A stretch of 64,000 bases of DNA from Streptomyces griseoruber (GTDB lineage: Bacteria > Actinomycetota > Actinomycetes > Streptomycetales > Streptomycetaceae): contig NZ_KQ948767.1 in assembly GCF_001514205.1 (NCBI RefSeq), forward strand, positions 124,001 through 188,000, given 5' to 3'. The position numbers were made by a program, and so were the translations under genes. The notes under the pieces are model-generated. The model did no database searches and was not told the origin of the DNA. It saw only the letters and a program-made list of their open reading frames with translations. Shown one piece after another: positions 34,832 through 54,123 of the stretch (its first letter is position 1; every line of letters starts with the position of its first letter).

Positions 34832-36556
34832 TCAGCCCGAGGCGGCCTGCGCCGGGGCCGGGGTCGGCGCGGGGGCGGTCGGGGGAGGGCCGAACAGCTC
34901 GGTGAGGGCGTCGAGTTGGAGGCTGATCGCGTCCAGGGCGGCGTGGGCGGTGGTCACCTCGGGCGATCGGGGCCCGCCGGCCGGGGCTTCGGGGCCCGCC
35001 GGGGATTCCTGGTTGGGCAGTCCCTCGGGTGCTGTGCCGCCCCCGGCCGGGTGCAGGGTCGTACCGTCGTCGGACGTGTCCGGTGCCGGGGCCGGGCGGC
35101 GTCCGATCGCGCGGCGGACCGCCACCCCGTGCGCCGCGACCTCCCGGCGTCGACGCGACAGCCCGGGGTCGGCGGCGACCGCGTCCGGCGCCGCGGCAAC
35201 AGCCGTGGCGTAGGCGCCCAGCGGCTCGGCGCACCGTCCCAGCGCGGCAGGTGCCGCCAGGATCGCCAAACCGCCCTTCCGCCACCGCGCGGCCAGTGCC
35301 GGCGGCACCGGGAACGACTCCGCGACGCGCAACGGGGCCGCGGCCAGCGTCAGTTGCTCCAGCCGGAACAGGAAGCGGGCCCGGGTAACCCGTACCGCCC
35401 GGGTGTCGTGCGGGTCGGCTGAGAGCACCTCGCCGAGGCCGGCCAGCGCCGCCGCGGTGCGGGACCGTACCGTCCCCGAGGTGGGGATGGGCAGGACGAG
35501 CCAGGAGGCGGCGATGCCCAGCACCGCGCCGACCGCGATTCCCGCCAGCCGGGTGTGCAGCAGGCTTCCGGCGTCCTGGCCGAACCAGTCGTAGAGCAGG
35601 GAGAGCACCGCGGTGACACAGCCCGCCCAGTACGCGTAGCTCAGCTCGCGCAGCCAGGTGGCGACGGCGAGGACGCTGAAGATGATGACGACGACGGTGT
35701 CCGAGTGGGGGCCGAAGGAACCGGCCACCGCCCCCGCGACCACCGTGCCCGCCGCCGCGCCCAGGGTCCGCCAGACCCCCTTGACCAGCACGTCCCCCCG
35801 GCTGCGCGCCCCGCTGCCGACCAGGAACGCGGTGAGCACGACCCACGTCCAGTGGTCCGGCCACAGCGCCCTCCCGAGCGCGAACGCGGCGCCCAGCGCG
35901 GCCACCGACTGCAGGGCCATACGGGTACTGGCCCGCAGGCCGGGGCGGTCCGGCGCGGGCATCGCGGCCACCGAGGCGGACGGCGGGCGGGGGACCAGAC
36001 CGGTGCGGTGGCCGACCCAGGTGACCACCGTCCCCCAGGCGACCGCGAACAGCGCGGTGAGCGCCGCCCAGCCGGTGGGCGCGTGTCCCTGCGCGGGGGC
36101 GACGCCGCCGGGCACGACCAGGACGGCGACCAGGGGCAGCACCACCAGCGTGCCGGCCCGGGTCGCCCGCATCCCGAACCGGCGTATCCAGACGGAGGCC
36201 GCGACGCCCAGGGTGAACAGGACGTCGCCGGCGTCGGGGTGGTGGTGGATCAGCGTGGTCAGTTCCATGCCGCCGGCCGCCGCGCAGGGCAGCACCAGGC
36301 AGGCGACCAGCCGGTCGGTCCGGTCGTGGACGCGCTGGACGCGGGCGAAAGCCGAGGAGATCACCACGGCCTGGACGACGCTGTCGACGTACAGACCGGC
36401 CCGGTTCTCGATCCACAGCGACCAGCCGTAGGTGCCGAGCACGGTGGTCATGCCGAGCGCGGTGGCGCGCAGCAGACGGGCGCCGGGGTCGAAGTGGAGA
36501 GCGAGGCGGAGAGCCCGGCGGAGACCTTGGCGCAGCCGCACCCATAAACTAAGCAT
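34832..36556 (-). CDS. FUSC-family membrane protein (aromatic acid exporter-like)
   Basis: The 574-residue protein has two sets of membrane helices with a cytoplasmic C-terminal tail, as in FUSC/YccC proteins, which export aromatic acids: RTLGAAAGTVVAGAVAGSFG and YAYWAGCVTAVLSLLYDWF are typical. The fourth codon of the ATG 36556 frame is TTA (CTT AGT TTA), so translation may need bldA unless a later GTG (codon 6) is used. No ribosome binding site is visible before the ATG. It is divergent from marR with 122 bases between them. Confidence 0.85.
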   Translation of the reverse strand: MLSLWVRLRQGLRRALRLALHFDPGARLLRATALGMTTVLGTYGWSLWIENRAGLYVDSVVQAVVISSAFARVQRVHDRTDRLVACLVLPCAAAGGMELTTLIHHHPDAGDVLFTLGVAASVWIRRFGMRATRAGTLVVLPLVAVLVVPGGVAPAQGHAPTGWAALTALFAVAWGTVVTWVGHRTGLVPRPPSASVAAMPAPDRPGLRASTRMALQSVAALGAAFALGRALWPDHWTWVVLTAFLVGSGARSRGDVLVKGVWRTLGAAAGTVVAGAVAGSFGPHSDTVVVIIFSVLAVATWLRELSYAYWAGCVTAVLSLLYDWFGQDAGSLLHTRLAGIAVGAVLGIAASWLVLPIPTSGTVRSRTAAALAGLGEVLSADPHDTRAVRVTRARFLFRLEQLTLAAAPLRVAESFPVPPALAARWRKGGLAILAAPAALGRCAEPLGAYATAVAAAPDAVAADPGLSRRRREVAAHGVAVRRAIGRRPAPAPDTSDDGTTLHPAGGGTAPEGLPNQESPAGPEAPAGGPRSPEVTTAHAALDAISLQLDALTELFGPPPTAPAPTPAPAQAASG

Positions 36557-36662
36557 CACGTAACATCATCGCCGATCCGTGCCGCTGCCATGTCCTTCAA
36601 GAGTGGACAAAACGGCGGGATTGCGTGGCGCGCGGAGAGGCTCACCCGCCCGTATTTAGTAA

Positions 36663-36678
36663 GTGATACCTTAATCAC
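36663..36678. promoter_or_regulatory. Probable MarR operator next to the marR start
   Basis: GTGAT and ATCAC form a perfect 5-bp inverted repeat with a 6-base spacer, ending directly before the marR ATG and lying between the two divergent genes. The position fits autorepression. No ribosome binding site is present, so the marR mRNA may be leaderless. Confidence 0.55.
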
Positions 36679-37248
36679 ATGACGTTGCAGAAGCCAGAGC
36701 GCATCCCCGAGGCCGGAGAGGGGGCCGAGGAAACCTCTCGTGCGGGGGACGCGGGTGGCGTGGGCGGCGCCCCTGGAGCGGCGGGTGCCCGGGAGTCCGC
36801 CGAGATCCGGCAGGGGGTCGTGCGGCTCGCGCGCCGGCTCAGCGCCGAGCGGCCGGCTGAGGGGCTGAGCCTCAACAAGAGCAGCGTCCTCGCGCATCTG
36901 CGGCGCAACGGGCCGATGTCCGCCGGGGCCCTGGCGGCGGCCGATCACCAGCAGCCGCAGTCCCTCACCCGGGTCTTCGCCGAACTCGAACGGGACGGGC
37001 TGATCAGCCGCACCCGGGACGAACACGACGGCCGGCAGCGGGTGCTGGAGCTGACGGAGGCCGGCCGGGACGCCCTCGCCGAGGACATGGCGCGGCGCGA
37101 CGCCTGGCTCGACGTGGCCCTCGCCGACCTCACCGAGACCGAACGCCAGGTGCTGCTGCTCGCCGCCCGCCTCTTGCGGCGGCTCGCCGACTCCCCGGCC
37201 GAACTGCCCGCCCCCGCACCCCGACCCGCACCCCGATCCTCACCCTGA
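36679..37248 (+). CDS. MarR-family regulator
   Basis: The 189-residue protein has a winged helix of the MarR kind: SLNKSSVLAHLRRNGPMSAG, then QPQSLTRVFAELERDGLISR and the wing TRDEHDGRQRVLELT. About 35 polar, Gly/Ala-rich residues come first, and a Pro-rich tail follows the dimerisation helix. It most likely controls the divergent FUSC exporter and itself, sensing the transported aromatic acid; this follows from common gene arrangement, not from any direct signal in the sequence. Confidence 0.87.
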   Translation: MTLQKPERIPEAGEGAEETSRAGDAGGVGGAPGAAGARESAEIRQGVVRLARRLSAERPAEGLSLNKSSVLAHLRRNGPMSAGALAAADHQQPQSLTRVFAELERDGLISRTRDEHDGRQRVLELTEAGRDALAEDMARRDAWLDVALADLTETERQVLLLAARLLRRLADSPAELPAPAPRPAPRSSP

Positions 37249-37291
37249 CCCCCGCCCCCGCCCTCACCTTCACGCTGACGAAGGGACGCCC

Positions 37292-38608
37292 GTGTCCTGG
37301 TCCGATCACGCCATCTGGTGGCACGTCTATCCCCTGGGCTTCCTCGGCGCCGAGCACGCCGCCCTGTCCGCCCGCTCCGCCCCGGTCCACCGGCTCCCGG
37401 CACTCACCGGCTGGCTGGACCACCTGGTGTCCCTCGGCTGCAACGGGCTCGCACTGGGCCCGGTGTTCGCCGCCGAGACCCACGGTTACGACACCGTGGA
37501 CCACTTCCGGATCGACCCCCGCCTCGGCACCGAGGACGATCTGGCCGAGCTGGTCGAACGGGCCGGCGAGCGCGGCGTGCGGGTCCTGCTGGACGGCGTG
37601 TTCCACCACGTCGGCCGGTCCTTCGGCCCGTTCGCCGATGTCGCGGCGCACGGCGCCCGGTCCCCGTACGCCGACTGGTTCGTCCCGGAGAGCGACGACT
37701 ACAGGGTGTTCGAGGGCCACCGCCACCTGGTCGCCCTCAACCACGCCGCCCCCGCCGTCGCCGACCACGTCGCCTCCGTCATGGAGCACTGGCTGGACCG
37801 GGGGATCGCCGGCTGGCGCCTCGACGCCGCGTACGCCGTGCCGCGCCCCTTCTGGCGCGCCGTCACCGACCGGGTCCGGCGCCGCCATCCCGGCGCCTGG
37901 TTCAGCGGCGAGGTCATCCACGGCGACTACACCGCGTACGTCACCGAGGGCGGCCTCGACACCGTCACCCAGTACGAGCTGTGGAAGGCGGTCTGGAGCT
38001 CCCTCAACGACACCAACCCGCACGAACTGGCCTGGGCCCTCAAACGCCACAACGCCTTCCTCGACGTCTTCGCTCCCCAGACCTTCGTCGGCAACCACGA
38101 CGTCACCCGCATCGCCAGCCGGCTGCGCGAACCACGCCATCTCGCGCACGCGCTCACGCTGCTGTTCACCCTGGGCGGCGTCCCGTCGGTGTACGCCGGG
38201 GACGAACGGGCGATGCGCGCCGTCAAGGAGGACCGGGTGGGCGGCGACGACGCGATCCGGCCCGCCTTCCCCGCGGATCCGGCCGGGCTGGGGGAGGAGG
38301 GGCTCGACGTCCAGCGGCTGCACCAGGCACTGATCGGGCTGCGCCGCCGCCACCCCTGGCTGGTGCGCGCCCACACCCGGGTCCATACCCTCGGCAACGC
38401 GGCGCTCTCCTACACCGCCGTCGACCCGGCGGGGGGCTCCGCCGTCGCCGTCGCCCTCAACTTCGGCACCGCGCCGGTCACCGCGGGGGTCCCGGCCGCC
38501 CCCTGGGCGCACGCGGCCGGCGACACCGTCATCGAGCCTGGCAGCGGTAAGGCCGTGCTGCCCCCGCTCGGCTGGTCGGTCGCCGTCTCGGCGGTGGCGC
38601 CGGACTGA
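37292..38608 (+). CDS. Alpha-amylase-family (GH13) glycosidase
   Basis: The 438-residue enzyme has the GH13 motifs in order: WWHVYPLGFLGAE, VLLDGVFHHVG (region I), GIAGWRLDAAYA (nucleophile Asp), GAWFSGEVIHG (acid/base Glu) and FVGNHDVTRIASR (stabilising Asp). There is no signal peptide, so it is probably cytoplasmic and acts on imported oligosaccharides or glycogen-like chains. GTG at 37292 follows GAAGGGA. The gene is 43 bases after marR and on the same strand, so co-transcription is possible. Confidence 0.9.
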   Translation: MSWSDHAIWWHVYPLGFLGAEHAALSARSAPVHRLPALTGWLDHLVSLGCNGLALGPVFAAETHGYDTVDHFRIDPRLGTEDDLAELVERAGERGVRVLLDGVFHHVGRSFGPFADVAAHGARSPYADWFVPESDDYRVFEGHRHLVALNHAAPAVADHVASVMEHWLDRGIAGWRLDAAYAVPRPFWRAVTDRVRRRHPGAWFSGEVIHGDYTAYVTEGGLDTVTQYELWKAVWSSLNDTNPHELAWALKRHNAFLDVFAPQTFVGNHDVTRIASRLREPRHLAHALTLLFTLGGVPSVYAGDERAMRAVKEDRVGGDDAIRPAFPADPAGLGEEGLDVQRLHQALIGLRRRHPWLVRAHTRVHTLGNAALSYTAVDPAGGSAVAVALNFGTAPVTAGVPAAPWAHAAGDTVIEPGSGKAVLPPLGWSVAVSAVAPD

Positions 38609-39010
38609 CCCGACGGCGTCGACGAGGTGGCCACTCGATGCCCGTCCCCGACGCCGGCCCTGACGCCGACCCCGACGCCCGCGAATTTCCGGTGACGAAG
38701 TAGTGCGGGAAAGGGGTCGCGTTTGCGTCGCGGCCGATCCGCCGAATTGATTCGTCGGCCGATATGTCGGTCGATGCTTCGGCCCATTCCCCGGCCCATT
38801 CCCGGCCGGTTCCTCGGCTGCTTCTTCGGGCGACTCGTCCGTTCAGCCCATCTTTGGCTCAGGTTTTGTCCGGTCCGATGGTCCGTTCGTCAGCCATCCG
38901 TCGACCAGTCCGTCGATCCGTGCGTCGATCCGTGTGTCGATCCGTCCGAAAAACGAAGGCCGTTCGTACGGAATTTTCCGTGCCCGGGGGCGGCCGGTGC
39001 GCCCCGCCCC
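38609..39010. other. Intergenic stretch with short tandem repeats
   Basis: No gene is seen in these 400 bases, which separate the converging GH13 and XRE genes. Runs of GTCCGTTCG/CGATCCG-like units give it a repetitive texture, and GC content falls near 38690-38980. No classic terminator hairpin was recognised. Confidence 0.45.
38912..38947. repeat. 12-bp tandem repeat, three copies
   Basis: The unit GTCGATCCGTGC occurs three times with small changes at the last bases. It is intergenic. It may be a slippage product with no function. Confidence 0.6.
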
Positions 39011-39622
39011 TCAACCCGGTTCCGCATTCACCGCCCGCGCCCAGGCCCGCCGCCACTGGACGACATGCTGGCCGTGCTGTCCGCAGACCCGGACGAAGGC
39101 GACCAGCAGTTCCTCCGAGGGCATCCGCAAACCGGCCAGCACGTCCGCGACCGTGCTCCGCGGCAGCGGGCCGGCACCCAGTTCGCGCGCCCGTTTCTGC
39201 ATTTCCCGCAGCGACGGCTGACCCGCCGCCAGCCGCACCCGGTGCATCGCCTCCAGCAGGTGGGCCGGGTGGTAGACGAGTTCCAGCCGACGCCCCGCCC
39301 GGGGGGCCGCCGGGGACTGCGGACCGCCGGCCGCGGACTCGGCGCCCACCGCCGCTCGTTCCCAGCGCAGCCGCGCCTCCTGCCGGGTCGCGCCGCAGAC
39401 CTGCGCATACGTCTCCACCACCTGCTGGCGCGGCAGGGCCGCCCCGCTGTCGGCCCGGCACAGGGTGACCGCCGAACAGGCGGGCCCGGCGACCCGTGGC
39501 AGCTCCGTCAGCTCCGACATCTGCCGGTACGTCAGCCCCGCACGCTGCCTGAGTGCGCGCAGCCACTGCGCCAGTTCCTCGTACCGCGCGGACGACGGCA
39601 CGGGTTCTCGCCTGCGAACCAC
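39011..39622 (-). CDS. XRE-family regulator with two helix-turn-helix-like parts
   Basis: The 203-residue protein has an N-terminal XRE helix-turn-helix (LAQWLRALRQRAGLTYRQMS) with the recognition region ending ALPRQQVVETYAQVCGA, and a second, similar pattern in the C-terminal half (QPSLREMQKRARELG, PLPRSTVADVLAGLRMPSEE). GTG at 39622 lies 5 bases after AGAGGAG. It lies on the opposite strand upstream of the type II PKS operon and is the nearest candidate regulator for it, though no operator was proved. Confidence 0.75.
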   Translation of the reverse strand: MVRRREPVPSSARYEELAQWLRALRQRAGLTYRQMSELTELPRVAGPACSAVTLCRADSGAALPRQQVVETYAQVCGATRQEARLRWERAAVGAESAAGGPQSPAAPRAGRRLELVYHPAHLLEAMHRVRLAAGQPSLREMQKRARELGAGPLPRSTVADVLAGLRMPSEELLVAFVRVCGQHGQHVVQWRRAWARAVNAEPG

Positions 39623-40163: not shown

Positions 40164-40433
40164 ATGACGACCGCTTCCCACGCCACCCTCGACGAGATCA
40201 TCGAGCTCATCAAGGAGGTCAAGCCGGGGATCGCCGACCAGGCCGTCACCGCCGACCAGTCCGTCGTCGAGGACCTGGGCCTCGACTCCCTCGACCTGCT
40301 CCAGCTCTCCCGGCGTATCACCCGCCAGTTCGGCGCCGACTTCGACCTCGACAGCTGGAACGCCGAGGCCGACGACCACCACCGCAGCGTCGCCTCCATC
40401 GCCGCCGCCGTTGCGGCCGGCAAGCATGCCTGA
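40164..40433 (+). CDS. Acyl carrier protein of the type II PKS
   Basis: The 89-residue protein is a four-helix ACP with the phosphopantetheine site Ser42 in VEDLGLDSLDLLQL. It is the first gene of a nine-gene operon, and ATG 40164 follows GGAGGAG at good distance. Its stop lies inside the start of the next gene (8-base overlap). The ACP would carry the growing chain for the KS, KR and dehydratase encoded downstream. Confidence 0.93.
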   Translation: MTTASHATLDEIIELIKEVKPGIADQAVTADQSVVEDLGLDSLDLLQLSRRITRQFGADFDLDSWNAEADDHHRSVASIAAAVAAGKHA

Positions 40434-41367
40434 GGCGGCCGTGCCCGAAGCCGCCACGAACGGGACCGCCGCGAACGGGACCGCCGCGAACGGGACCGCC
40501 GCGAACGGGACCGCCGCGAACGGGACCGCCGCGAACGGGACCGCCGCGAACGGGACCGCCGTGCCGGGGACCACCCCGGCCGGGGCGGTCGGCGCCGGGA
40601 CGCCCACGACCCCCCGGGTCGCGCTGGTCACCGGCGGCTCGCGCGGGATCGGCGCCGCCATCGCACGCCGCCTCGCCGCCGACGGGCTCACCGTGCACCT
40701 GGTGTGCCGCAGCGCGCGGGACGCCGGACTCCGGGTCGTCAAGGAGATCGAGGAGTCCGGCGGCCGCGCGGTCCTGCACCAGGCCGACGTCGGCGTCGAG
40801 GCCGACGTGGAGGACCTGGTGGAACGTGTCACTGCGCAGGAGGGTGCACTGCACGTCCTCGTCAACAACGCCGCCGTCATCGACGACCAACTGCTCGCGG
40901 TGACCCGTACCGCCCGTTGGGAGAACGTGCTGCGGACCAACCTCACCGGCCCGTTCCTCACCAGCCGCGAGGCCCTGCCCGTCATGCTCGACCAGGGCTG
41001 GGGACGCATCATCAACATCTCCTCCAACTCGGCCCGCACTCCCGGCCCCGGCCAGAGCGCCTACGCCGCGTCCAAGGGCGGTATCGAGTCGCTCACCCGC
41101 GCCCTCGCGGTAGAGGTCGGCCGCAAGGGCATCCGCGTCAACTGCGTGGCACCCGGCAAGGTCCGTACCGAGATGACCTCGGCCGTGGCCGACAAGCTCG
41201 GCTCGGACGGGGACGGCACCCGCTGGGGACTGCCCGAGGACATCAGCGGGCTGGTCGCCTTCCTCGCCGGCGACGAGGCCGACTACATCCAGGGCCAGAC
41301 CTTCACCGTCGACGGCGGACGCATGGTCATGCGCAGCCCTGGCACCGGCCGCCGCCCCCGCCGATGA
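40426..41367 (+). CDS. Ketoreductase (SDR) with N-terminal NGTAA repeats
   Basis: The 313-residue SDR has the NADPH motif VALVTGGSRGIGAAIARRL from about residue 65 and the catalytic Ser and Tyr-x3-Lys (NISSNSARTPGPGQSAYAAS, with Tyr213 and Lys217). It is a FabG-like beta-ketoacyl-ACP reductase. Residues 12-46 are seven copies of NGTAA, encoded by a perfect 15-bp repeat, and are absent from normal FabG proteins. The gene overlaps the ACP gene by 8 bases. The repeats lengthen a probably disordered N-terminal tail. Confidence 0.9.
   Translation: MPEAAVPEAATNGTAANGTAANGTAANGTAANGTAANGTAANGTAVPGTTPAGAVGAGTPTTPRVALVTGGSRGIGAAIARRLAADGLTVHLVCRSARDAGLRVVKEIEESGGRAVLHQADVGVEADVEDLVERVTAQEGALHVLVNNAAVIDDQLLAVTRTARWENVLRTNLTGPFLTSREALPVMLDQGWGRIINISSNSARTPGPGQSAYAASKGGIESLTRALAVEVGRKGIRVNCVAPGKVRTEMTSAVADKLGSDGDGTRWGLPEDISGLVAFLAGDEADYIQGQTFTVDGGRMVMRSPGTGRRPRR
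40459..40563 (+). repeat. 15-bp tandem repeat coding for NGTAA
   Basis: The unit AACGGGACCGCCGCG is present seven times in a row, the last one ending GTG in place of GCG. Copies are nearly identical, so the array is recent or kept uniform, and it keeps the reading frame of the ketoreductase gene. Confidence 0.95.
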
Positions 41368-41401
41368 GGCCCGGGCAGGCGCCGGAGGCGATGAGACCGA
41401 C

Positions 41402-41449
41402 GAGGGAGAGGAGAGCGATGAGGGAGAGGAGAGCGATGAGGGAGAGGAG
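41402..41449 (+). repeat. 18-bp tandem repeat with Shine-Dalgarno-like units
   Basis: The unit GAGGGAGAGGAGAGCGAT is repeated about 2.7 times just before the dehydratase start. Each unit contains a purine-rich AGGGAGAGGAG stretch followed by ATG, so it duplicates a ribosome binding site. The final copy directly serves the downstream GTG. Confidence 0.9.
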
Positions 41450-41455
41450 GCGGCC

Positions 41456-41953
41456 GTGGGGGCCGTGAAGTACTGGGAGGACCTGGCGCAGGCGCCCGTA
41501 CGGCGGTTCGGACCAGTGGTGTTCGACGAGGCGCTGCTCGATCGCCTGCTGGATCTGATGGGCGAGAAGCACCCGGTGCACGACAGCGACTCGTTCGCCC
41601 ACGGCACCGACCGCCGACGGCGCATCGTGCCCGGCGGATTCATCCACTCGATCACCTCCGGCTGGGTGGTCCAGCACGGCTCACCCGCCGCGATCGTCGG
41701 GATGCGGCGGATGAGCTGGGATTTCGTACGGCCGCTCTACCCCGACACCCCGTTCTGGTTCACCACCGCCACCGACCGGTCCGCCCCGATCGACGACCGG
41801 CTCGGCCTGATCGACACCACCCGCCGGGTCTTCGACGAACACGACCGGACCTACGCCATCGGACGGATGAGCGTGGTGCTGCTGCGCCACGCCGCCGTCC
41901 CCGCAGCCGAGGCCGCGACGCCGACCGCAATCCCGACCGGAAGGGCTCAGTGA
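41456..41953 (+). CDS. MaoC-like dehydratase (hot-dog fold)
   Basis: The 165-residue protein has a hot-dog-fold pattern: KHPVHDSDSFAHGTDRRRRI with the catalytic Asp/His region of MaoC hydratases, then VPGGFIHSITSGWVVQHGSP. It would dehydrate the beta-hydroxyacyl-ACP made by the ketoreductase. GTG at 41456 follows GAGAGGAGGCGG; a second GTG at 41465 is possible. The stop overlaps the start of the next SDR gene. Confidence 0.85.
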   Translation: MGAVKYWEDLAQAPVRRFGPVVFDEALLDRLLDLMGEKHPVHDSDSFAHGTDRRRRIVPGGFIHSITSGWVVQHGSPAAIVGMRRMSWDFVRPLYPDTPFWFTTATDRSAPIDDRLGLIDTTRRVFDEHDRTYAIGRMSVVLLRHAAVPAAEAATPTAIPTGRAQ

Positions 41954-42759
41954 TGGACAGCCAGTACCAGCCGCTCAAGGGCAAGGTGGCCCTGGTCACC
42001 GGCGGATCGCGTGGCATCGGCGAGGGCATCAGCCGCAAGCTCGCCTCCTGGGGCGCCACCCTCGCGATCAACTACGTCGACCGGGAGGGCCCGGCGAAGG
42101 AGCTCGCCGCCGAACTCGCCGACCAGGGCACCGAGGTGTCGCTGCACCGCGCCGACCTCAGCGACCCGGCGCAGATCCAGAACCTCATCGACGAGATCGG
42201 CGCCCTCCACGACGACCTGCACATCCTGATCCAGAACGCCGCCGCCACCAAGTTCAGCCGGCTGGAGGACGCCACCCTCGGCGACTGGCAGTTCGTGCAG
42301 GACACCAACTCCCGTGCCACCTGGCTGCTCGCCAAGTACGCGCTGCCGCTGATGAAGAACCGCCCCGGCGCCCGCTTCATCACCATCACCAACTCCACCA
42401 CCACCCGCATCATCCCCCGGGCCGGCCTGTTCGCCGCCGCCAAGGCGGGCCTGGAGTCCCTGACCGACTACCTCTCCTACGAACTCGCCCCCTACGGCAT
42501 CGTCGCCAACTGTGTCCGCCCCGGCCTGGTGCAGACCGGCGTGTTCAAGGTGCGTCCCGACTTCGCGCACGGCGTCAAGAAGGAACTGTCGGTGTCCCCC
42601 TGGGACGGCGACAAGATGACGACCCCGGAGAACAGCGGTGACGTGGTCGCCCTGCTCTGCCTGCCGGAGGCCGACTGGATCGCCGGGCAGACCGTCACCG
42701 TCGACGGCGGCTACCGCCTGTGGGGCGGCATCAGCGGCGGAGGCCGGCGTGCCGAGTGA
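41953..42759 (+). CDS. SDR protein lacking the catalytic tyrosine
   Basis: The 268-residue protein has the NADP-binding TGGSRGIGEGISRKLA and the conserved NAAATKFSRLED, DTNSRATWLLAK and VNCV-like segments of SDR enzymes. At the active site Ser148 and Lys164 are present but the tyrosine position is Phe160 (GLFAAAKAGL). It may use a variant mechanism, be an enoyl reductase-like protein, or be a non-catalytic partner. ATG at 41953 lies after GGAAGGG; the dehydratase stop overlaps it (TGATG). Confidence 0.8.
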   Translation: MDSQYQPLKGKVALVTGGSRGIGEGISRKLASWGATLAINYVDREGPAKELAAELADQGTEVSLHRADLSDPAQIQNLIDEIGALHDDLHILIQNAAATKFSRLEDATLGDWQFVQDTNSRATWLLAKYALPLMKNRPGARFITITNSTTTRIIPRAGLFAAAKAGLESLTDYLSYELAPYGIVANCVRPGLVQTGVFKVRPDFAHGVKKELSVSPWDGDKMTTPENSGDVVALLCLPEADWIAGQTVTVDGGYRLWGGISGGGRRAE

Positions 42760-44116
42760 CCGCAGTCCGGACGACGTCCCGGGCCGTACCCCTCACGACG
42801 TCCCGGGCCGTACCCCCTACGACGCCTCCGCCGGGATCGTCGTCACCGGCACCGGAGTGATCTCCCCGGCGGGCCTCGGCGCGGCCCGTCTGTGGGAGGC
42901 GATGGCGGCCGGCAAGGCCTTCTTCGGCACCGGCGACCACGACGGGCCGGCCCCCGCGCTGCCCTGGCCGACGGCCGCCGTCGACACCTCCGAGATCGGC
43001 TGGCCCCAGGGCACCGTCTGGGCAAACGCAGGCAAGTACGCCAACCAGTCCGCCCGTTGGGCGGTCGCGGTGGCCGGGCAGGCGCTGGAGCAGGCCGGGA
43101 TCACCGGGGACACCGAGGACGTGCGCGGCGGCACCGTGATGGCCGTCGGGAGCAGCGGCGACGAACTCAGCGAGGTCATGCCCCGGCTCGCCGCCCGCTT
43201 CCGCGACGACCCCCGCCCGCTCGCCAAATTCCTCCATGACGAGGTCCCCGACTACTCCTACATCCGCGGCATCCCCTCCCAGCTCGGCCAGTTCGTCTCC
43301 CTCGCCAGCGGCTTCCGCGGCTCCAACGTCGCCGCCTACGGCGAGTCCGCCGCGGGCGGCACCGGAGCGCTCGCCCTCGCGGTACGGCTGCTGGAGGACG
43401 GCGAACTCGACCGGGTCCTGGTGGTCGGCGTGGCCGGTGCGCTGTCCATGACCTCACTGGCCGCCTTCGACAGTCACGAGGCGTTCGGCACCCGCGCCAC
43501 CGTCGGCGCCGGCCCCTTCGACACCGGCCGCGCCGGGACCCTGCCCGGCCAGGGCGCCGCCGCCGTGCTGCTGGAACGCGCCGACCGGGCACGGGGCGTA
43601 CCGCTCGCCCGGTTCCTCGGCTGCGAGGTACTGGCCGCCCGTGACCCGGAGAGCGCGTCCCGGTACGCGGTCGACGCGGTCCTCGCCGACGCCGCGCCGC
43701 CCGACGCCTGGTGGGCGCACGGCGCCGGCTCCCGCACCCTGGACGCCGTCGAGGCCCATACGGTCACCGCACGGGCCGGCACGCTGCCGGTCACCGGCTC
43801 CAAGGGCACCATCGGCAACGCGTTCGAGTGCGCGGCGCTCCTCGACACCGCCCTCGTGGTGGAGAGCCTGGCCCGCCGCGAACTCCCCCCGGTCGGCCTG
43901 CTCGACCGTCCCGACCCGGCCCTGGGCGCGCTCGACCCGGTCCTCGGCGGACCCCGCCCGCTGGGGGACGGTACGACCGTCCTGCTCACCGCCTTCAACC
44001 AGGGGCGCGGCGCGGCGGCGGCGGGGGCGGCGCTGATCGCGGCGGTGTCCGGCACCGACGGGACCCGCACCGACGGGACCGGCACCGGAGAAGCAGACGG
44101 AGAGGCACCCGCATGA
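42749..44116 (+). CDS. Chain-length-factor-like protein (KS-beta)
   Basis: The 455-residue protein is a ketosynthase homologue without the catalytic cysteine: the active-site position is Ser200 in GESAAGGTGALALA, and the usual HGTGT and GHxxGA histidine motifs are replaced by HGAGSRTLDAV and KGTIGNAFECA. These changes are those expected of the KS-beta/CLF partner. The gene precedes the KS gene; the reverse order is usual in known type II clusters. GTG 42749 follows CGGAGGC, within the end of the SDR gene. Confidence 0.8.
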   Translation: MPSDRSPDDVPGRTPHDVPGRTPYDASAGIVVTGTGVISPAGLGAARLWEAMAAGKAFFGTGDHDGPAPALPWPTAAVDTSEIGWPQGTVWANAGKYANQSARWAVAVAGQALEQAGITGDTEDVRGGTVMAVGSSGDELSEVMPRLAARFRDDPRPLAKFLHDEVPDYSYIRGIPSQLGQFVSLASGFRGSNVAAYGESAAGGTGALALAVRLLEDGELDRVLVVGVAGALSMTSLAAFDSHEAFGTRATVGAGPFDTGRAGTLPGQGAAAVLLERADRARGVPLARFLGCEVLAARDPESASRYAVDAVLADAAPPDAWWAHGAGSRTLDAVEAHTVTARAGTLPVTGSKGTIGNAFECAALLDTALVVESLARRELPPVGLLDRPDPALGALDPVLGGPRPLGDGTTVLLTAFNQGRGAAAAGAALIAAVSGTDGTRTDGTGTGEADGEAPA

Positions 44117-45498
44117 GTTTCCCGAGTCACGAGACCCCCGGCACCCAGGATCCCCTGGACCGTCCCGACGACATCGTCATGACCGGCCTCGGCGTGGTCA
44201 CCCCCATCGGCGGCGACGTCGAGACCTTCTGGTCGGCCAACCTGGAGGGCCGCTCCGGGATCGTCCTGGAGGAACGGATGGACACCCGGGGCCTGCCCTG
44301 CGGCTGGACCGCAGGACTCATCCCGGACGACGTCAAGGACAAGGTCCGGGCCGGGCACGGTGCCCCCGACCGCTCCTGGGGCGACACCCTGATGCACGCC
44401 TGCGTCGAACAGGCCCTCGCCGACGCCGACTTCGCGGGCCGGCCGCCCGCCGACGGCCCGGCCGCCCTGGTCTACGCCCGGGTCTGGCCCGGCCCGACCG
44501 GCTCCTTCCCCCAGGACTACGTCACCCACATGGCGGACCTCGCCGACCGCTACGACGCCGTCGGCAACGACCCCGTCGGCGTTCTCGAACGCCTGCGCGG
44601 ACGGCATCTCTCCCTGGAGACCCAGGACCTGTCCGCCTTCCCCCGCGAGATCGCCGAACGCCTCGGCACCGCCGTCCTCCCGGTCCGGCTGGAGGCCACC
44701 TGCTCCGGCGGCCTGCGCGCCATCGCCGAGGCGGCCCGGCTGCTGCGCTCGGGCCGTGCCGAGTACGCGGTCGTCTCAGCCGCCGTGTCCCGTAACACCC
44801 CCTACGTGCTCTCCCAGTACGGGCAGTTGATGGCGCTGTCCCGCTGGAAGGGCGACCCGGGACAGGCGTCCATGCCGTTCGACAGGCGCCGCACCGGCAT
44901 GGTCATCAACGAATCGGCGGGCGCCCTCGTCCTGGAGACCGCCGCGCACGCCGCCCGGCGCGGCATGACCCGTCCGCACGCCGTGATCGGCGGCTGGGGC
45001 CTGGCCGTGGACACCGCCCATATGACCGCGCCCCGGGTCGAGATGATCGAACGGGTCATGCGCACCGCCCTCGCCGACGCCGGGGCGGAGCCCGACGACG
45101 TCGACTCGGTCAACGCGCACGGCACCTCCACCCGCCTCAACGACGTCACCGAGGCACGCGCCCTGCACCAGGTGTTCGGCGAGCGCATGGCCGAGATCGA
45201 CACCTGCGCGGTCAAGTCGCTCACCGGGCACGGCTCGGCCGCCTCCGGCGTCGTGGAGAGCGCGGTTGCCGCGCTCACCCTGTGCCGGGGCGTCGTACCG
45301 CCCGTGGTGACCTGCACGGAACCCGACCCGGCGTGCGGGGTCAAGACCTCGCTCACCCCGGTACGGCGCCCGGTCGCCGCGGTGCTGAAGAACTCCTTCG
45401 GCTTCGGCGGCCAGTACGCGTCGATGCTGTTCCGCCGGCCCGCGACGCCCCGCCAGGCGCCCGAGCGGGCACGGACGCACGAACCCCGGCCGGCATGA
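44113..45498 (+). CDS. Beta-ketoacyl synthase (KS-alpha) of the type II PKS
   Basis: The 461-residue enzyme has all the catalytic residues: Cys197 in LEATCSGGLRAIAEA, His336 in VNAHGTSTRLND, and His373 with Lys368 in VKSLTGHGSAASG. It would condense malonyl-ACP units together with the preceding KS-like protein. ATG at 44113 overlaps the CLF stop by 4 bases. There is no aromatase, cyclase or starter ketosynthase next to it. Confidence 0.92.
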   Translation: MSFPSHETPGTQDPLDRPDDIVMTGLGVVTPIGGDVETFWSANLEGRSGIVLEERMDTRGLPCGWTAGLIPDDVKDKVRAGHGAPDRSWGDTLMHACVEQALADADFAGRPPADGPAALVYARVWPGPTGSFPQDYVTHMADLADRYDAVGNDPVGVLERLRGRHLSLETQDLSAFPREIAERLGTAVLPVRLEATCSGGLRAIAEAARLLRSGRAEYAVVSAAVSRNTPYVLSQYGQLMALSRWKGDPGQASMPFDRRRTGMVINESAGALVLETAAHAARRGMTRPHAVIGGWGLAVDTAHMTAPRVEMIERVMRTALADAGAEPDDVDSVNAHGTSTRLNDVTEARALHQVFGERMAEIDTCAVKSLTGHGSAASGVVESAVAALTLCRGVVPPVVTCTEPDPACGVKTSLTPVRRPVAAVLKNSFGFGGQYASMLFRRPATPRQAPERARTHEPRPA

Positions 45499-46238
45499 GC
45501 GCCGCGGCCGTGGACCGGCTGGACCACGAGGAGATCGAACCGGCCGGGCAGCACCTCGCCACCGTGGTGTGGCTGCACGGCATCGGCCAGGTCCCCGGCG
45601 ACCTGGCCGAGGTGGCCGGCCGGCTGCGGCTCGCCGAGGCGGGCGTGCGCGGGGTCTTCCCGCGCGCGCCCGTCACGGCACCCAGCCTCCTCACCGGACT
45701 CCCGGTGACCTGCTGGTTCCCGCAGAGCGTGCTGGCGATCGACCGCATCGACACCGAAGGCCTGCACGCGGTACGCCGCCCGCTGGCCGCCCTGCTCACC
45801 GAGGAGGCCGAGCGGATCGGCGCGGACCGGGTCCTGCTCGCCGGTTTCTCCCAGGGCGCCACCGTCGCCCTCACCCTCGCCCTGTCCCACCCCGAGCCCC
45901 TGGCGGGCGCCGCCCTGTACGCCCCCTACCTGCCCCCCGACCTGCCCGCACTGCTCGACGGAGGGCGCCCTCACCCCGCCAACGCCGGGCTCCCGGTGTG
46001 GATCGGGCACGGGGCGCGGGACTGGGTCGTCCCGGAGCGCAGCGGCGAGGGCCTGCGCGACCTCCTCTGCTCCTGGGGCCACCCGGTGACCTGGCAGCGC
46101 TACGCCGGCGGCCACGAACCCTTCGCGGGGGTACGGGCCTCACTGCCGGACTTCCTCGCCAAGGCCCTCGGCACCCCCGTACCGCACGTCCCGGACCCGC
46201 CCCGCCTCCCCGCGCGCCGCCGGCCCGGACTGGACTGA
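45495..46238 (+). CDS. Carboxylesterase/phospholipase-type serine hydrolase
   Basis: The 247-residue alpha/beta hydrolase has VVWLHGIGQVPGDLAEV, the nucleophile motif LAGFSQGATVAL, an Asp in GHGARDWVVP and a His in GGHEPFAG, as in the esterase/lysophospholipase group. In the operon it may act as thioesterase that releases the finished chain from the ACP. ATG at 45495 overlaps the KS stop by 4 bases. Confidence 0.88.
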   Translation: MSAAAVDRLDHEEIEPAGQHLATVVWLHGIGQVPGDLAEVAGRLRLAEAGVRGVFPRAPVTAPSLLTGLPVTCWFPQSVLAIDRIDTEGLHAVRRPLAALLTEEAERIGADRVLLAGFSQGATVALTLALSHPEPLAGAALYAPYLPPDLPALLDGGRPHPANAGLPVWIGHGARDWVVPERSGEGLRDLLCSWGHPVTWQRYAGGHEPFAGVRASLPDFLAKALGTPVPHVPDPPRLPARRRPGLD

Positions 46239-46240
46239 CC

Positions 46241-47086
46241 ATGACCGCCCCCAGCTCGGTGACCGCCCCCAGCTTCATGACCGCCTCCGGCCTCATGACG
46301 GTCACGACCTTCACGAGGGTCACGCCCGTCGCGGCGCCCGGAACGCGGCAGGTGCACCTCTGGACCGTCCCGCTCGACGGACCGGCGGCCGACACGGCGG
46401 CGGCGCTGGCGCCCTCCGTCCTCGACCCGGGGGAGCGACGGCGTGCGACCCGCCTGCTGCTCCCCGAGGACCGCCGCCGCTGGACCACCGCCCGGGTCAC
46501 CCTGCGCCGCGTCCTGGGTGCCTACACCGGCCTGCCGCCCGCCCGGATCGCCTTCGCCTACGGGCGTCACGGCCGGCCCCGGCTGGACGGGCCCGGCGGC
46601 CGTCGCCTCCGCTTCAACCTCACCCACAGCCGCGACCGCGCCCTGCTCGCCGTATGCCGGGACACCCCGGTCGGCGCCGACCTGGAACACCTGGACGCCG
46701 GGCCGCCCGACGAGGGGGGCCTGGACGAACTCGCCGAGGCCGTCCTCGCCCCGCCCGAACTGGGCGCCTACCGGAGACTGCCGTACCCCGACCGCCGGGC
46801 GGCCCTGCTGCGCCGCTGGACCGGCAAGGAAGCCCTGCTCAAGGCCACCGGACGCGGGGTCACCCTGTCCGCGGTCCGCCGCGTCACGGTCCCCGACGGC
46901 GCGGGCCCGGCGTACGGCGTGCCGGGGGCGTGGACGCTGCTGCGACCGGCGCCGGGCGGCCCGTACACGGCGGCGATCGCCGTACCGCGGGACACCCGTA
47001 CCGGAAACGACAAGGACTGGGAGGTCGTCGAGATTGTCCCCGCCGATTTCAACGACGCGGTCGACCGTGCCGTCGACCACGGCTGA
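46241..47086 (+). CDS. Sfp-type phosphopantetheinyl transferase
   Basis: The 281-residue protein carries the Sfp-type motifs: FNLTHSRDRALLAV, VGADLEHLD (Mg-binding acidic residues) and RRWTGKEALLKATGRG. It would add the phosphopantetheine arm to the ACP of the operon. Its N-terminal 40 residues are a Thr/Ser-rich tail with several possible starts, ATG at 46241 being the first. The end overlaps the next gene by 20 bases. Confidence 0.93.
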   Translation: MTAPSSVTAPSFMTASGLMTVTTFTRVTPVAAPGTRQVHLWTVPLDGPAADTAAALAPSVLDPGERRRATRLLLPEDRRRWTTARVTLRRVLGAYTGLPPARIAFAYGRHGRPRLDGPGGRRLRFNLTHSRDRALLAVCRDTPVGADLEHLDAGPPDEGGLDELAEAVLAPPELGAYRRLPYPDRRAALLRRWTGKEALLKATGRGVTLSAVRRVTVPDGAGPAYGVPGAWTLLRPAPGGPYTAAIAVPRDTRTGNDKDWEVVEIVPADFNDAVDRAVDHG

Positions 47087-48077
47087 CCCCGTATCCGGGC
47101 CGGTGCCGGTGGCCCCCGCTACCGGCCTCCTCTTCCCCGGCCAGGGTGCCCAGCGGCCCGGGATGGGCGAGCCGTGGCGGGACACCGCGCACTGGAAGGT
47201 GGTCGACCGGCTGTCCGAGGCCTGCGACCGCGACCTCGGCCGGCTGCTGCTGCACGCCGACGCCGCCGAACTGACCCGGACGGACAACGCCCAGCTCGCC
47301 ACCTTCACCCTGGAGACGCTGATCCTCGACGCGCTCGACACGGCCGTCGGCGGTGTCCGGCCGGCCGTGTGCGCCGGGCACAGCCTGGGCGAGTTCGCCG
47401 CGCTGACCGCCGCCGGGGTGCTCACCCCGGAGGACGCCGGCCGGCTGGTCGCCGAACGCGGCGCCGCGATGGCGGAGGCGGCCCGCCGGGTGCCCGGCAC
47501 CATGGCCGTCCTGGTCGGACCCGGTGTCGCCGCCCACGCCGAGCGGCTCGCCGCCCGGCTGCGGGCCGGCGCCGAGGCGCCGATCTGGGTCGCCAACCTC
47601 AACGGCCCCGCCCAGGTCGTGGTCTCCGGCACCGCCGACGCCGTCGCCGCGCTGGCCGAGGAGGCGGAGGCGGCGGGCGCGCGGGTGGTCCGCATCCCGG
47701 TCGGCGGGGCCTTCCACACCCCGCTGATGGCGGCGGCCCGCCCCCGCCTCGCCGCCGCGGTCTCCGCCGTCGCGCTGCACCCCGCGCACTGCCCGGTGAT
47801 CGCCAACGTCGACGCCCGCGCTCACCGGGGCGACCCGGAGCGCTGGCGGGACCTGATGCTGCGGCACCTGGTCATGCCCGTGCGCTGGGCGGGCTCGATG
47901 CGCACCCTCACCGCGGTGGCCCGGGGCCCGCTGCGGCTGGCCGAACTCGGTCCCGGCAGCACGCTCAGCGGACTCGCCCGCCGCCTGCTGCCCCCGCAGG
48001 TGCCGGTCCGTTCGGTCGCCACCCCGGACCAGTTGGCGGCCCTGGTATCCGACTGGTGGCCGGCGCACGCGGCCTGA
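47067..48077 (+). CDS. ACP S-malonyltransferase
   Basis: The 336-residue acyltransferase has the FabD motifs GLLFPGQGAQRPGMGE, the nucleophile Ser106 in CAGHSLGEFAALTAAG, and His217 in GGAFHTPLMAAAR. It loads malonyl onto the ACP. With the PPTase it makes the operon largely independent of housekeeping enzymes. The GTG 47067 start overlaps the PPTase gene; a later in-frame GTG near 47103 cannot be excluded. Confidence 0.9.
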   Translation: MPSTTADPVSGPVPVAPATGLLFPGQGAQRPGMGEPWRDTAHWKVVDRLSEACDRDLGRLLLHADAAELTRTDNAQLATFTLETLILDALDTAVGGVRPAVCAGHSLGEFAALTAAGVLTPEDAGRLVAERGAAMAEAARRVPGTMAVLVGPGVAAHAERLAARLRAGAEAPIWVANLNGPAQVVVSGTADAVAALAEEAEAAGARVVRIPVGGAFHTPLMAAARPRLAAAVSAVALHPAHCPVIANVDARAHRGDPERWRDLMLRHLVMPVRWAGSMRTLTAVARGPLRLAELGPGSTLSGLARRLLPPQVPVRSVATPDQLAALVSDWWPAHAA

Positions 48078-48338
48078 CCGGGCCCGCCACCCGAGTCTGC
48101 CCGGGCCTGTCACCCCGATACTGCCGGGGCCTCGCCGTCGGGAGCACACCCCGGCCGGCCGCACCCGCACCGCCGGGAAGCACCGCAGCGGGCATGACGC
48201 GGCGTCAGCGACCCCGTGCTCTCCCTTCTCTGCTGGGAGCTGCACACCACCGACCGCGACAGGGCCGAACGCGTCAGGGGTTGACGCCCGTGCCACGGAG
48301 CGTGCGCCGCTCTCGCCGAGGGCGGCGCCGGCCCGAGG

Positions 48339-52969: not shown

Positions 52970-53596
52970 ATGCGTCACACGCACGAGGACCCCGAGCTGC
53001 TCGCACTTGTCCACCGCTACGTCACGCCCGACAGGCGCTACCTCAAACTCGGCGGCCCTCTCATGCGCATGACCGAACCTGAACGTGCCAAGTTCACACG
53101 GGAGCTCGGCGAGGCCGCCGACGACATCACGGCCCGCGAGCTGACCGTCCTGCTCGAAGGCGGGTGGCGCGAACGCAAGACCGCAGCCTGGCTCATCGCC
53201 GTCGCCCGCAGAACCGAGTTCCGCGAACGTCTCGGCGACATGCTGCTTGCCAGCGAGGTCTGCTTCGCAGGCTCGGCCTACTGCGTCACCTTCGCCGCGT
53301 TCGCGACTCCCGCCGACGTGGACCTGCTGGCTGCCTACCTCGATCGCTACCTGCGCCGCCCCGACCTCTACTACGACCAGCCGGCCGCCATGGGCGCGCT
53401 CCTCCACCTCGACGCCAAGCTCCGTGCCGATCAAGCAGCCCGCTTCCTGACCGCGGACGGCCTCTGGCATCAGTGGATCGACGGACCGCCCCGCAAGGAG
53501 CACCACGGCACGCCGGACGGCTATCGCGAGAGCATCAGCCGGCTCTGCGTCTTCGCCGATGAGAGCGCCGAGCACCGCACGGCAAGGAACCGATGA
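52970..53596 (+). CDS. DUF6000-family protein
   Basis: The 208-residue protein shows the DUF6000 features that I recognise: ALVHRYVTPDRRYLKLGGPL, LVLLEGGWRERKTAAWLIAV-like helices, and a conserved helical body ending QWIDGPPRKEHHGTPDGYRE. No catalytic motif is visible and the role is unknown. ATG at 52970 is preceded only by a weak ribosome binding site. The gene is isolated between the recombinase fragment and low-GC DNA. Confidence 0.75.
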   Translation: MRHTHEDPELLALVHRYVTPDRRYLKLGGPLMRMTEPERAKFTRELGEAADDITARELTVLLEGGWRERKTAAWLIAVARRTEFRERLGDMLLASEVCFAGSAYCVTFAAFATPADVDLLAAYLDRYLRRPDLYYDQPAAMGALLHLDAKLRADQAARFLTADGLWHQWIDGPPRKEHHGTPDGYRESISRLCVFADESAEHRTARNR

Positions 53597-54123
53597 CATC
53601 CAGACCAGCCAAGTGTTCGATGAGTAAGTCGGCGAACTGCGCGGCCGTGGCTTCTTGGGAGACATCCCATGCGTGCGCCGCTGCTCCCGCCTCTTCGAAC
53701 CGGGTGCACCGTTGCCAGCGGAAGAACCCGCCCGCGTCTCCGCCCCCCGAGCGGTGGCCCGCCCCCAACCCCCGCGCGTCGTCCGCTGGATCATTCCAAC
53801 ACCGGATCCCACCGGGCGGCACGGCCACAGATCACACACAGTGGGGGCTCGACCGGACGTCGCAGGGCAATATCACAAGTTAGCCCCTTTCGCGCCAATT
53901 TTCGAATATGTCAGGCCTGTTCAACCCCTTTCGGGTGACCGGTTACAACCCCCCGCGACTCTATGAAGTAAGTCCCGTTTAAGTGAGCGTGTGTCACTCG
54001 GCTAGGTGAGTATTGGAACCAGAACGCCAAAGAGGCAGCGAAAAACCTGAGAATAGGGCCGACGCGACGGGCGCCGACCCAAGACGTCAGGCGTGACGAC
54101 AGGAGGGTTGAAGATCGTATGAG
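53597..54123. other. Low-GC intergenic stretch, no recognised gene
   Basis: After a normal-GC part, GC content falls clearly from about 53870 (TTTCGCGCCAATTTTCGAAT, GTAAGTCCCGTTTAAGTGAG). An AGGAGGG stretch at 54100 is followed by an ATG that would open a weak 91-residue frame. No hairpin or convincing gene was found. The composition suggests DNA of different origin. Confidence 0.45.

What the first reader, a model, noticed from the sequence alone, without database searches (positions are those of the whole stretch)
40164..48077. Self-contained reducing type II PKS operon with its own PPTase and malonyltransferase
ACP, KR, MaoC-like dehydratase, KS, CLF-like, hydrolase, PPTase and AT sit in one nine-gene operon with overlapping starts, with no aromatase, cyclase or starter KS. 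This set would build a reduced, polyene-type chain, and resembles the ishigamide/aryl-polyene kind of logic but not any cluster I can name. Independence from housekeeping AT and PPTase is rare for type II systems.
Basis: partly seen in the sequence, partly recalled or inferred. Interest (0 to 1): 0.8.

Follow-up and report, generated by a model that had tools for sequence, protein, structure and literature searches.

The report
Uncharacterised reducing type II polyketide cluster
A Streptomyces genome carries a rare but conserved set of genes that looks like a self-standing factory for a small reduced acid, built around a chain-building enzyme pair that sits on its own branch of the family tree; its product is unknown.

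Summary
Nine tightly packed genes (40164-48077) encode ACP, FabG-type KR, MaoC-like dehydratase, a second SDR, a CLF-like protein, KS, an alpha/beta-hydrolase, a PPTase and a malonyltransferase-like AT. Eleven named relatives (9 Streptomyces, Actinoplanes, a Catenulispora MAG) share the ACP-to-hydrolase core, apart from one decayed copy and one cut contig. With it travel a FUSC exporter, MarR, GH13 and usually XRE (34832-39601), so the unit is about 13 genes, 13.2 kb.
It is a reducing KS-CLF system, but the KS forms its own deep, fully supported branch apart from the ishigamide-type, aryl-polyene, aromatic, cispentacin and FabF enzymes sampled, sister group unresolved; the CLF does too, in one tree. 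The dehydratase is MaoC-like, and the second SDR has lost its catalytic Tyr in 11 of 11 members. A polyene is only one possibility.
'Rare independence' fails: PPTase (4 of 11 assessable loci) and AT (6 of 10) are optional here, and other reducing type II clusters carry them.
Best reading: an uncharacterised cluster for a reduced, exported carboxylic acid, a new variant of a known kind. Eight searches of an open-licence library showed no description.

The parts
34832..36541 (-). FUSC-family (fusaric-acid-resistance-like) exporter, divergent from MarR
   Evidence: PF13515 1.9e-13; a homologue lies near the core in all 11 relatives, broken in L025
36679..37248 (+). MarR-family regulator
   Evidence: PF01047 2e-11; 10 of 11 relatives, not found on the short L034 contig
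37292..38608 (+). GH13 alpha-glycosidase (cyclomaltodextrinase/neopullulanase-like)
   Evidence: PF00128 7e-40; nearest solved 1ea9 cyclomaltodextrinase; catalytic D, E and NHD kept in 11 of 11 members, window plus 10 relatives; 7 of 290 genomes of the genus, including all 6 that have the CLF
39011..39601 (-). XRE/HTH_31 regulator
   Evidence: PF13560 4.6e-12; found in 9 of 11 relatives
40164..40433 (+). ACP with DSL phosphopantetheine site
   Evidence: PF00550 2.2e-8; GLDSLD in 11 of 11 members compared
40426..41367 (+). KR1, FabG-type ketoreductase with a repeat-coded N-terminal extension
   Evidence: TIGR01830 2e-65, below its cut-off; YAASK and SSNS in 11 of 11 members compared, L025 left out
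41465..41953 (+). MaoC-like hot-dog dehydratase (GEKHPVH site)
   Evidence: MaoC Pfam hit at E <= 10 in 11 of 11 members, best 8.6e-7; E34, H36, P37 and H39 invariant
41953..42759 (+). SDR2, FabL-like SDR lacking both the FabG-type and FabL-type catalytic Tyr
   Evidence: NCBIfam FabL 2e-52, 178 bits against cut-off 328; F160 and K164 invariant, A157 at the FabL Tyr column, 11 of 11
42749..44116 (+). CLF-like partner: condensing-enzyme fold, no active-site Cys
   Evidence: PF00109 1.5e-19; Cys column empty, or Ala/Gly by motif; second His is Asn in 11 of 12 and Thr in L034; AF2 model pLDDT 69.4, pTM 0.79, Z 42.9 to the actinorhodin KS
44113..45498 (+). KS with intact Cys-His-His
   Evidence: PF02801 3e-28; TCSGG or TCAGG, NAHGTST (NAHDTST in L025) and KSLTGHG: Cys and both His in 12 of 12
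45495..46238 (+). alpha/beta-hydrolase, likely chain-releasing thioesterase
   Evidence: PF02230 6e-18; GFSQG, Asp and HE kept in 12 of 12
46241..47086 (+). PPTase (accessory)
   Evidence: PF01648 3e-13; homologue in 4 of 11 assessable loci, a 3' remnant in L025
47103..48077 (+). malonyl-type AT (accessory; start could be 47067)
   Evidence: TIGR00128 FabD 2e-61, 208 bits against cut-off 260.9, scored on 47067-48077; in 6 of 10 assessable loci

Best explanation
A small, self-standing biosynthetic gene cluster of 13 genes that makes and exports a reduced, probably short-chain carboxylic acid by an iterative type II PKS of its own lineage. Inferred mechanism: PPTase primes the ACP and AT loads malonyl; where these genes are missing the host's copies would serve. 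KS with its Cys-less CLF partner elongates, KR1 reduces the beta-keto group and the MaoC-like enzyme dehydrates. SDR2 then acts on the enoyl or keto intermediate in a way that does not use the usual Tyr: a modified enoyl reductase, an isomerase, or a non-catalytic partner. The hydrolase releases the acid. The FUSC exporter, paired divergently with MarR, pumps it out. GH13 may attach or remove a glucosyl group. Shown: gene content, conservation, catalytic residues, a separate KS branch, GH13 co-occurrence. Inferred: every chemical step and the product.
For: Core order conserved across the 12 loci, with decay in L025 and a cut contig in L034. KS catalytic residues in 12 of 12; CLF keeps the condensing fold without Cys. 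Hydrolase triad in 12 of 12. FUSC, MarR and GH13 move with the core, lying upstream in some loci and downstream in L032, L033 and L035. GH13 is in 7 of 290 genomes of the genus and the CLF in 6 of 295; all six CLF genomes have GH13, hypergeometric p about 9e-12, approximate because the two draws differ slightly. Own branch for the KS (100/100, stem 1.3; again 100/100) and for the CLF (100/99, stem 1.9).
Against: No product, expression or biochemical data. Genome G176 keeps GH13 alone at the syntenic site, so GH13 may have a use without the PKS. No sister group is resolved for the KS: polyene-type placements are not rejected (HR p 0.413; HRa 0.333, HRa+HRc 0.392), and the free trees put it weakly to moderately beside the beta-branching (HMGS-cassette) KS (93/91 with one plasmid KS inside; 62/84). 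The MaoC assignment rests on weak sequence hits; its AF2 model was poor (pLDDT 44.9). That the product is short or a free acid is inferred only from the hydrolase and exporter families.
Confidence: 0.55

Rival explanations
1. It is an ordinary polyene-type highly reducing type II PKS (ishigamide/aryl-polyene logic): KS-CLF, KR and DH repeat to give a conjugated polyenoic acid, and SDR2 is a redundant or inactive reductase.
For: KS, CLF, KR, DH and ACP are all present. Sister placement with cinnamoyl-type KS is not rejected (HRa p 0.333, HRa+HRc p 0.392; three-member set p 0.413); HRb+APE1 p 0.0975 and HRb+APE1+KS-alpha p 0.509. Among the references, KR1 is closest to the KR of such a locus (L081, 38.5%, 152 bits).
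Against: The KS scores 127 bits to Iga11 (6kxd), whereas an Iga11-type KS from L081 scores 410. Joining with three HR plus two aryl-polyene KS is rejected (p 0.003). MaoC-like rather than FabA-like DH. A conserved second SDR has no role in the scheme.
Confidence: 0.2
2. It is a dedicated type II fatty-acid-like synthase: SDR2 is a true enoyl reductase with an unusual proton donor, so the product is a saturated or partly saturated acid.
For: SDR2 is closest to FabL among the listed NCBIfam models (2e-52); KS is nearest FabF among the BLAST references (162 bits, 31%) and in PDB; a joint clade with FabF is not rejected (p 0.276).
Against: Both Tyr positions (Y-x3-K and the FabL Y-x6-K) are lost in 11 of 11. 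FabL and FabF cut-offs are missed (178 against 328; 247 against 493.75). FAS does not use a CLF.
Confidence: 0.15
3. It makes a cyclised product, such as an alkylated aromatic or cyclopentane acid, with the Tyr-less SDR2 or the MaoC-like enzyme acting as cyclase or isomerase rather than in a fatty-acid-style cycle.
For: The type II PKS-like cispentacin system uses a hot-dog protein as a decarboxylase and, its authors propose, a CLF-like partner in cyclisation (PMC10698177, section 7 read). A joint clade with AmcF KS is not rejected (p 0.447). FUSC exporters and MarR regulators are often tied to aromatic acids (recalled).
Against: KS scores 169 bits to AmcF, cut-off 325. None of the nine operon proteins hits a cyclase/aromatase model among those listed.
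Confidence: 0.1

Closest known systems
Highly reducing type II PKS of ishigamide and of cinnamoyl lipids (Iga11-Iga12; skyllamycin, youssoufene, globisporamic acid)
   Same: KS plus Cys-less CLF, KR, hot-dog DH, ACP; may carry own AT and PPTase (gla cluster, passages; AT in L062 and L081)
   Different: KS on a separate deep branch, CLF too; MaoC-like DH instead of the two AmcE-like DH genes of the reference loci; one KS-CLF pair and no DsbA/isomerase-like gene (for the references); extra Tyr-less SDR, FUSC exporter, MarR and GH13
Aryl polyene clusters (E. coli CFT073, L066)
   Same: KS, CLF-annotated gene, KR, DH, ACP, thioesterase-type gene
   Different: CFT073 has a second ACP, methyltransferase, lysophospholipid-type acyltransferase, glycosyltransferase, acyl-CoA synthetase, MMPL and LolA genes, without counterpart among the 13 genes; family KS plus three HR plus two aryl-polyene KS as one clade rejected (p 0.003), with aryl-polyene KS alone borderline (p 0.059)
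Cispentacin-type KS-CYF system (AmcF-AmcG)
   Same: non-aromatic type II PKS-like pair with ACP and a hot-dog protein
   Different: KS below the AmcF cut-off (169 against 325 bits); no ligase model hit among the 13 genes; the host has a separate AmcF locus
Type II fatty acid synthase (FabF, FabG, FabL, FabD)
   Same: each core enzyme type has a FAS counterpart; nearest solved KS is FabF
   Different: CLF partner, accessory genes, and each NCBIfam model listed for these proteins below its cut-off (lists for KR1 and SDR2 capped at 25)

Membership tests
Highly reducing (polyene) type II PKS | KS with Cys-His-His plus adjacent CLF without the Cys | tested here: met
   KS Cys and both His in 12 of 12; CLF lacks Cys
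Highly reducing (polyene) type II PKS | KR, dehydratase and ACP encoded with the pair | tested here: met
   (dehydratase by weak MaoC hits)
Highly reducing (polyene) type II PKS | KS groups with known polyene KS | tested here: inconclusive
   Own 100/100 branch outside the Iga11-type and cinnamoyl-type clades; but joint clade with HRa not rejected (p 0.333), HRa+HRc 0.392, HRb+APE1 0.0975, HRb+APE1+KS-alpha 0.509, three HR 0.413; HR+both APE rejected p 0.003. References were few: 4 HRa, 2 HRb, 2 HRc, 2 APE
Highly reducing (polyene) type II PKS | FabA/FabZ-type dehydratase (a trait of the reference clusters rather than a strict definition) | tested here: not met
   MaoC in 11 of 11; one L062 DH hits FabA, the other has no Pfam hit; no BLAST hit between family DH and the reference proteins
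Highly reducing (polyene) type II PKS | product is a conjugated polyene | not testable with these tools
   no chemistry available
Aryl polyene cluster | second ACP, acyltransferase, glycosyltransferase and MMPL/LolA genes as in CFT073 | tested here: not met
   compared with one annotated cluster, CFT073; one ACP and a FUSC exporter here
Aromatic type II PKS | KS in the KS-alpha clade and cyclase/aromatase genes | tested here: not met
   KS outside the clade of the two KS-alpha used; joining with them weakly rejected, p 0.037, though a wider clade with HRb, APE1 and KS-alpha is not (p 0.509); no cyclase model among hits listed for the nine proteins
Cispentacin/coronafacic-type PKS | KS above the AmcF model cut-off and an AmcH ligase | tested here: not met
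   169.3 bits against cut-off 325; no ligase hit among the 13 genes
Type II fatty acid synthase | KS above the FabF equivalog cut-off, no CLF | tested here: not met
   247 against 493.75 bits; CLF present
FabG/FabL reductase (SDR2 only) | catalytic Tyr (Y-x3-K or Y-x6-K; the FabL spacing recalled) | tested here: not met
   Phe and Ala at these positions in 11 of 11; Lys kept

The most novel reading that the evidence does not exclude
A further functional class of type II PKS, beside the aromatic, polyene/aryl-polyene and cispentacin classes: an independent KS-CLF lineage coupled to a MaoC-type dehydratase and a Tyr-less SDR that performs a new, non-standard step on the ACP-bound chain, with GH13-mediated glucosyl transfer to, or removal from, an exported acid.
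Probability: 0.25. Interest if true: 0.75.

Novelty: new variant of a known kind. Interest (0 to 1): 0.5.

Why it matters
If right, a compact 13-gene cluster in a heavily mined genus gives access to a KS-CLF lineage that nests in none of the characterised classes sampled here, with an SDR whose conserved loss of the catalytic Tyr asks for a new mechanism. It is small enough to reconstitute in vitro from nine proteins, or from seven if AT and PPTase come from the host. It would also be an unusual tie between an alpha-glucan-type enzyme (GH13) and a polyketide. That AT and PPTase come and go among otherwise alike clusters suggests that cluster self-sufficiency is an evolving, optional trait.

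Tried and rejected
Ordinary FabF/FAS duplicate: rejected by missed cut-offs and the CLF. Cispentacin cluster: rejected; the AmcF locus of this genome is elsewhere. GH13/MarR/FUSC as chance neighbours: rejected by their co-movement and, for GH13, co-occurrence, with G176 as the exception; co-occurrence was not tested for MarR and FUSC. NF005490 as a route to polyene KS references: its loci L037 and L038 carry HMG-CoA-synthase-type genes and L036 an AT (by eye), so they are beta-branching cassettes; I kept them as an outgroup. Plasmid hits gave few useful references. The dehydratase AF2 model was too poor to search (pLDDT 44.9). Querying the KS N-terminal part against PDB did not bring Iga11 near the top (16.9 bits). 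Promoter and terminator scans found none of either, which means little for Streptomyces. Structure comparison of the CLF model does not separate KS, CLF and FabF types (Z 39-44).

Rows dropped: L025 left out of the KR1 alignment, of the CLF tree rows and of A3 because of its internal deletion; it stands in the CLF alignment, where its first half is out of frame. The L025 hits to PPTase and SDR2 were set aside as weak (the PPTase one proved to be a remnant). Two FabH-like rows dropped from the tree. The trees used 7 and 5 of the 12 family KS and no CLF. AT counts leave out L029 and L034 (contig ends); PPTase counts leave out L034. The unrelated 30% AT-like hit in L032 is not counted. An earlier count said L080 carries an AT; the fetched stretch does not reach that position, so only L062 and L081 are claimed.

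Literature: (eight searches of an open-licence library; one search listed 10 of 333) showed no paper on this cluster; most subscription papers are not held. Papers seen: PMC10698177 abstract and sections 4, 7, 9; PMC9582728, PMC10777205, PMC12230676, PMC8358021, PMC9381841 passages only; all others as search listings. Recalled, from no call: MarR and FUSC links to aromatic acids, FabL Y-x6-K, MaoC G-D-x-N-P-x-H, Gln in decarboxylating CLF, transglycosylation by maltogenic amylases, the position guess for the CFT073 cluster.


Full report
WHAT IS THERE. Nine genes on the + strand, 40164-48077, encode ACP, KR1, a dehydratase, SDR2, CLF, KS, hydrolase, PPTase and AT. On the starts chosen five of the eight junctions overlap, and the largest gap is 97 nt (KR1-DH). 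The window lies in an unnamed 10.2-Mb genome (G000, contig 5).

THE REAL EXTENT. A scan of named genomes with the KS found 11 relatives: nine Streptomyces (yr375, aureus, rhizosphaerihabitans, populi, olivochromogenes, longwoodensis, acidiscabies, GQFP, geranii), Actinoplanes sp. RD1 and a Catenulispora MAG. The order ACP-KR1-DH-SDR2-CLF-KS-hydrolase is kept, except that the MAG contig starts inside KR1 and yr375 has a large internal deletion. Four upstream genes belong too. A FUSC exporter (11 of 11 relatives), MarR and GH13 (10 of 11 each) lie upstream in some loci and downstream in L032, L033 and L035, so they move with the core; an XRE regulator is in 9 of 11. GH13 is found in 7 of 290 genomes of the genus and the CLF in 6 of 295; all six CLF genomes have GH13 (p about 9e-12). 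The seventh, G176, keeps only GH13, flanked by the same genes that flank the S. longwoodensis cluster, 81-93% identical. That looks like a loss with GH13 left behind, though GH13 predating the cluster at that site is not excluded. In a sample of 396 genomes across the phylum, the KS was found at E <= 1e-100 in 2, both of this genus and one of them this genome. The cluster is rare.

CATALYTIC RESIDUES. KS: Cys, both His and Lys kept in 12 of 12; L025 has Gly to Asp beside the first His. CLF: condensing-enzyme fold (AF2 pLDDT 69.4, pTM 0.79; Z 42.9 to the actinorhodin KS, 43.5 to a FabF). In the CLF the Cys column is empty or Ala/Gly rather than the Gln of decarboxylating partners (Gln recalled), the first His is kept in the members aligned, and the second is Asn in 11 of 12 and Thr in L034. 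KR1: Ser-Tyr-Lys in 11 of 11 compared. Dehydratase: MaoC-type, with GEKHP[VI]H in 11 of 11; the recalled MaoC motif has Asp where this family has Glu. SDR2: closest NCBIfam model is FabL (178 bits, cut-off 328), but Phe stands at the FabG-type Tyr and Ala at the FabL-type Tyr in 11 of 11, with the Lys kept. Its conservation (79% mean column identity) argues against a dying gene. Hydrolase: Ser in GFSQG, Asp and His in 12 of 12. GH13: catalytic Asp, Glu and NHD in 11 of 11; nearest solved structures are cyclomaltodextrinase, maltogenic amylase and neopullulanase.

PHYLOGENY. In a 60-row tree the 12 family KS form one branch (100/100, stem 1.3 changes per column) and the 11 family CLF another (100/99, stem 1.9). 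The tool warned that the family CLF and reference CLF are long branches that may join falsely, so I rely on the KS. In KS-only trees with two aryl-polyene KS and three or eight KS of reducing type II loci, the family stays a separate 100/100 branch. The reference loci were labelled by me from their content: one to three KS genes with CLF-like genes, KR, two DH genes, a DsbA-like gene like the glutathione-dependent isomerases of cinnamoyl clusters. They were also labelled by similarity to Iga11: the HRb KS of L081 scores 410 bits to 6kxd, against 127 for the window KS. The sister group is open. Free trees put the family weakly to moderately beside the beta-branching KS (93/91, with a long-branched plasmid KS inside; 62/84). 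Not rejected as a joint clade: HRa p 0.333, HRa+HRc 0.392, HRb+APE1 0.0975, HRb+APE1+KS-alpha 0.509, FabF 0.276, three HR 0.413, AmcF 0.447, APE alone 0.059. Rejected: HR plus both aryl-polyene KS (0.003) and KS-alpha alone (0.037). So 'own lineage' is supported and 'unrelated to polyene KS' is not.

AT AND PPTase. AT follows the hydrolase in 6 of 10 assessable loci and a PPTase homologue in 4 of 11; only the window has both intact, while L029 ends right after its PPTase. The yr375 copy (93-95% identical DNA over the core, 88% in the FUSC blocks) has lost most of the PPTase, leaving a readable 3' end, together with the stretch from KR1 to mid-CLF and part of FUSC: a decayed copy, unless the assembly is at fault. 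The host also has a FabD-like gene beside its FabH-ACP-FabF genes (C2:757050, 40% identical) and a second PPTase-like gene (C7:320810, 41%). Own AT and PPTase are not rare in reducing type II systems: L062 and L081 carry an AT, and the gla cluster of S. globisporus has PPTase GlaB and AT GlaA (PMC9381841, passages).

HOW IT MOST LIKELY WORKS. Malonyl-ACP is made with the cluster's or the host's PPTase and AT. KS-CLF extends the chain, KR1 reduces, the MaoC-like enzyme dehydrates, SDR2 acts on the chain by an atypical route, and the hydrolase frees the acid. The FUSC pump, divergent from MarR (137-bp gap), exports it, and GH13, co-directional with MarR (43-bp gap), may transfer or remove glucose. 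No starter ligase or KSIII was found among the 13 genes, so an acetyl starter from malonyl decarboxylation is the simplest guess. Residues, gene order and co-inheritance are shown; the chemistry is inferred. A polyene, a partly saturated acid and a cyclised acid all remain possible.

MEMBERSHIP AND NOVELTY. It works like a reducing type II PKS (KS, CLF, KR, DH and ACP are present). I do not file it inside the ishigamide or aryl-polyene families: the dehydratase type and accessory genes differ, and KS placement is inconclusive. Eight literature searches showed no description of it; the library lacks most subscription papers. antiSMASH 8 reports a new rule for highly reducing type II PKS (PMC12230676, one passage), so the cluster may be flagged automatically; I could not test that. 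Novelty: new variant of a known kind.

Noticed in passing
window 40451-40561, 41393-41449, 42771-42824, 44052-44087, 46240-46299, 48072-48132: Short tandem repeats (15-24 bp units) sit at gene junctions in six places of the operon, against three arrays inside genes; the first codes a repeated NGTAA stretch in the KR1 N-terminus. In yr375 a small repeat lies at the scar of the lost PPTase.
   Followed up: partly
L025 (Streptomyces sp. yr375): A near-identical copy of the cluster with large deletions: window 40826-43449 is missing outright, 46233-47005 and 35602-36759 are replaced by about 55 and 230 unaligned bases; KS has NAHDTST. A decayed cluster, or in part an assembly fault.
   Followed up: partly
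L075:16866-18170 (genome G176): Only the GH13 gene remains at the site where S. longwoodensis has the full cluster; flanking genes match at 81-93%.
   Followed up: partly
G000:C19:186859-187959 (L040): The same genome has a cispentacin-type locus: AmcF model 586.9 bits against cut-off 325, beside an ACP-like, a hot-dog-like and a ligase-like gene by eye.
   Followed up: no
window 29270-34563: Two adjacent large CHAT-domain proteins on the - strand next to the cluster, without a counterpart in the relatives' fetched loci.
   Followed up: no
L062, L080, L081: Reducing type II PKS loci of cinnamoyl-like make-up in other genomes, up to three KS genes each, with DsbA-like and hydrolase-like genes.
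   Followed up: partly
window 52970-56728: DUF6000 and DUF4132 proteins downstream of the cluster, function unknown.
   Followed up: no
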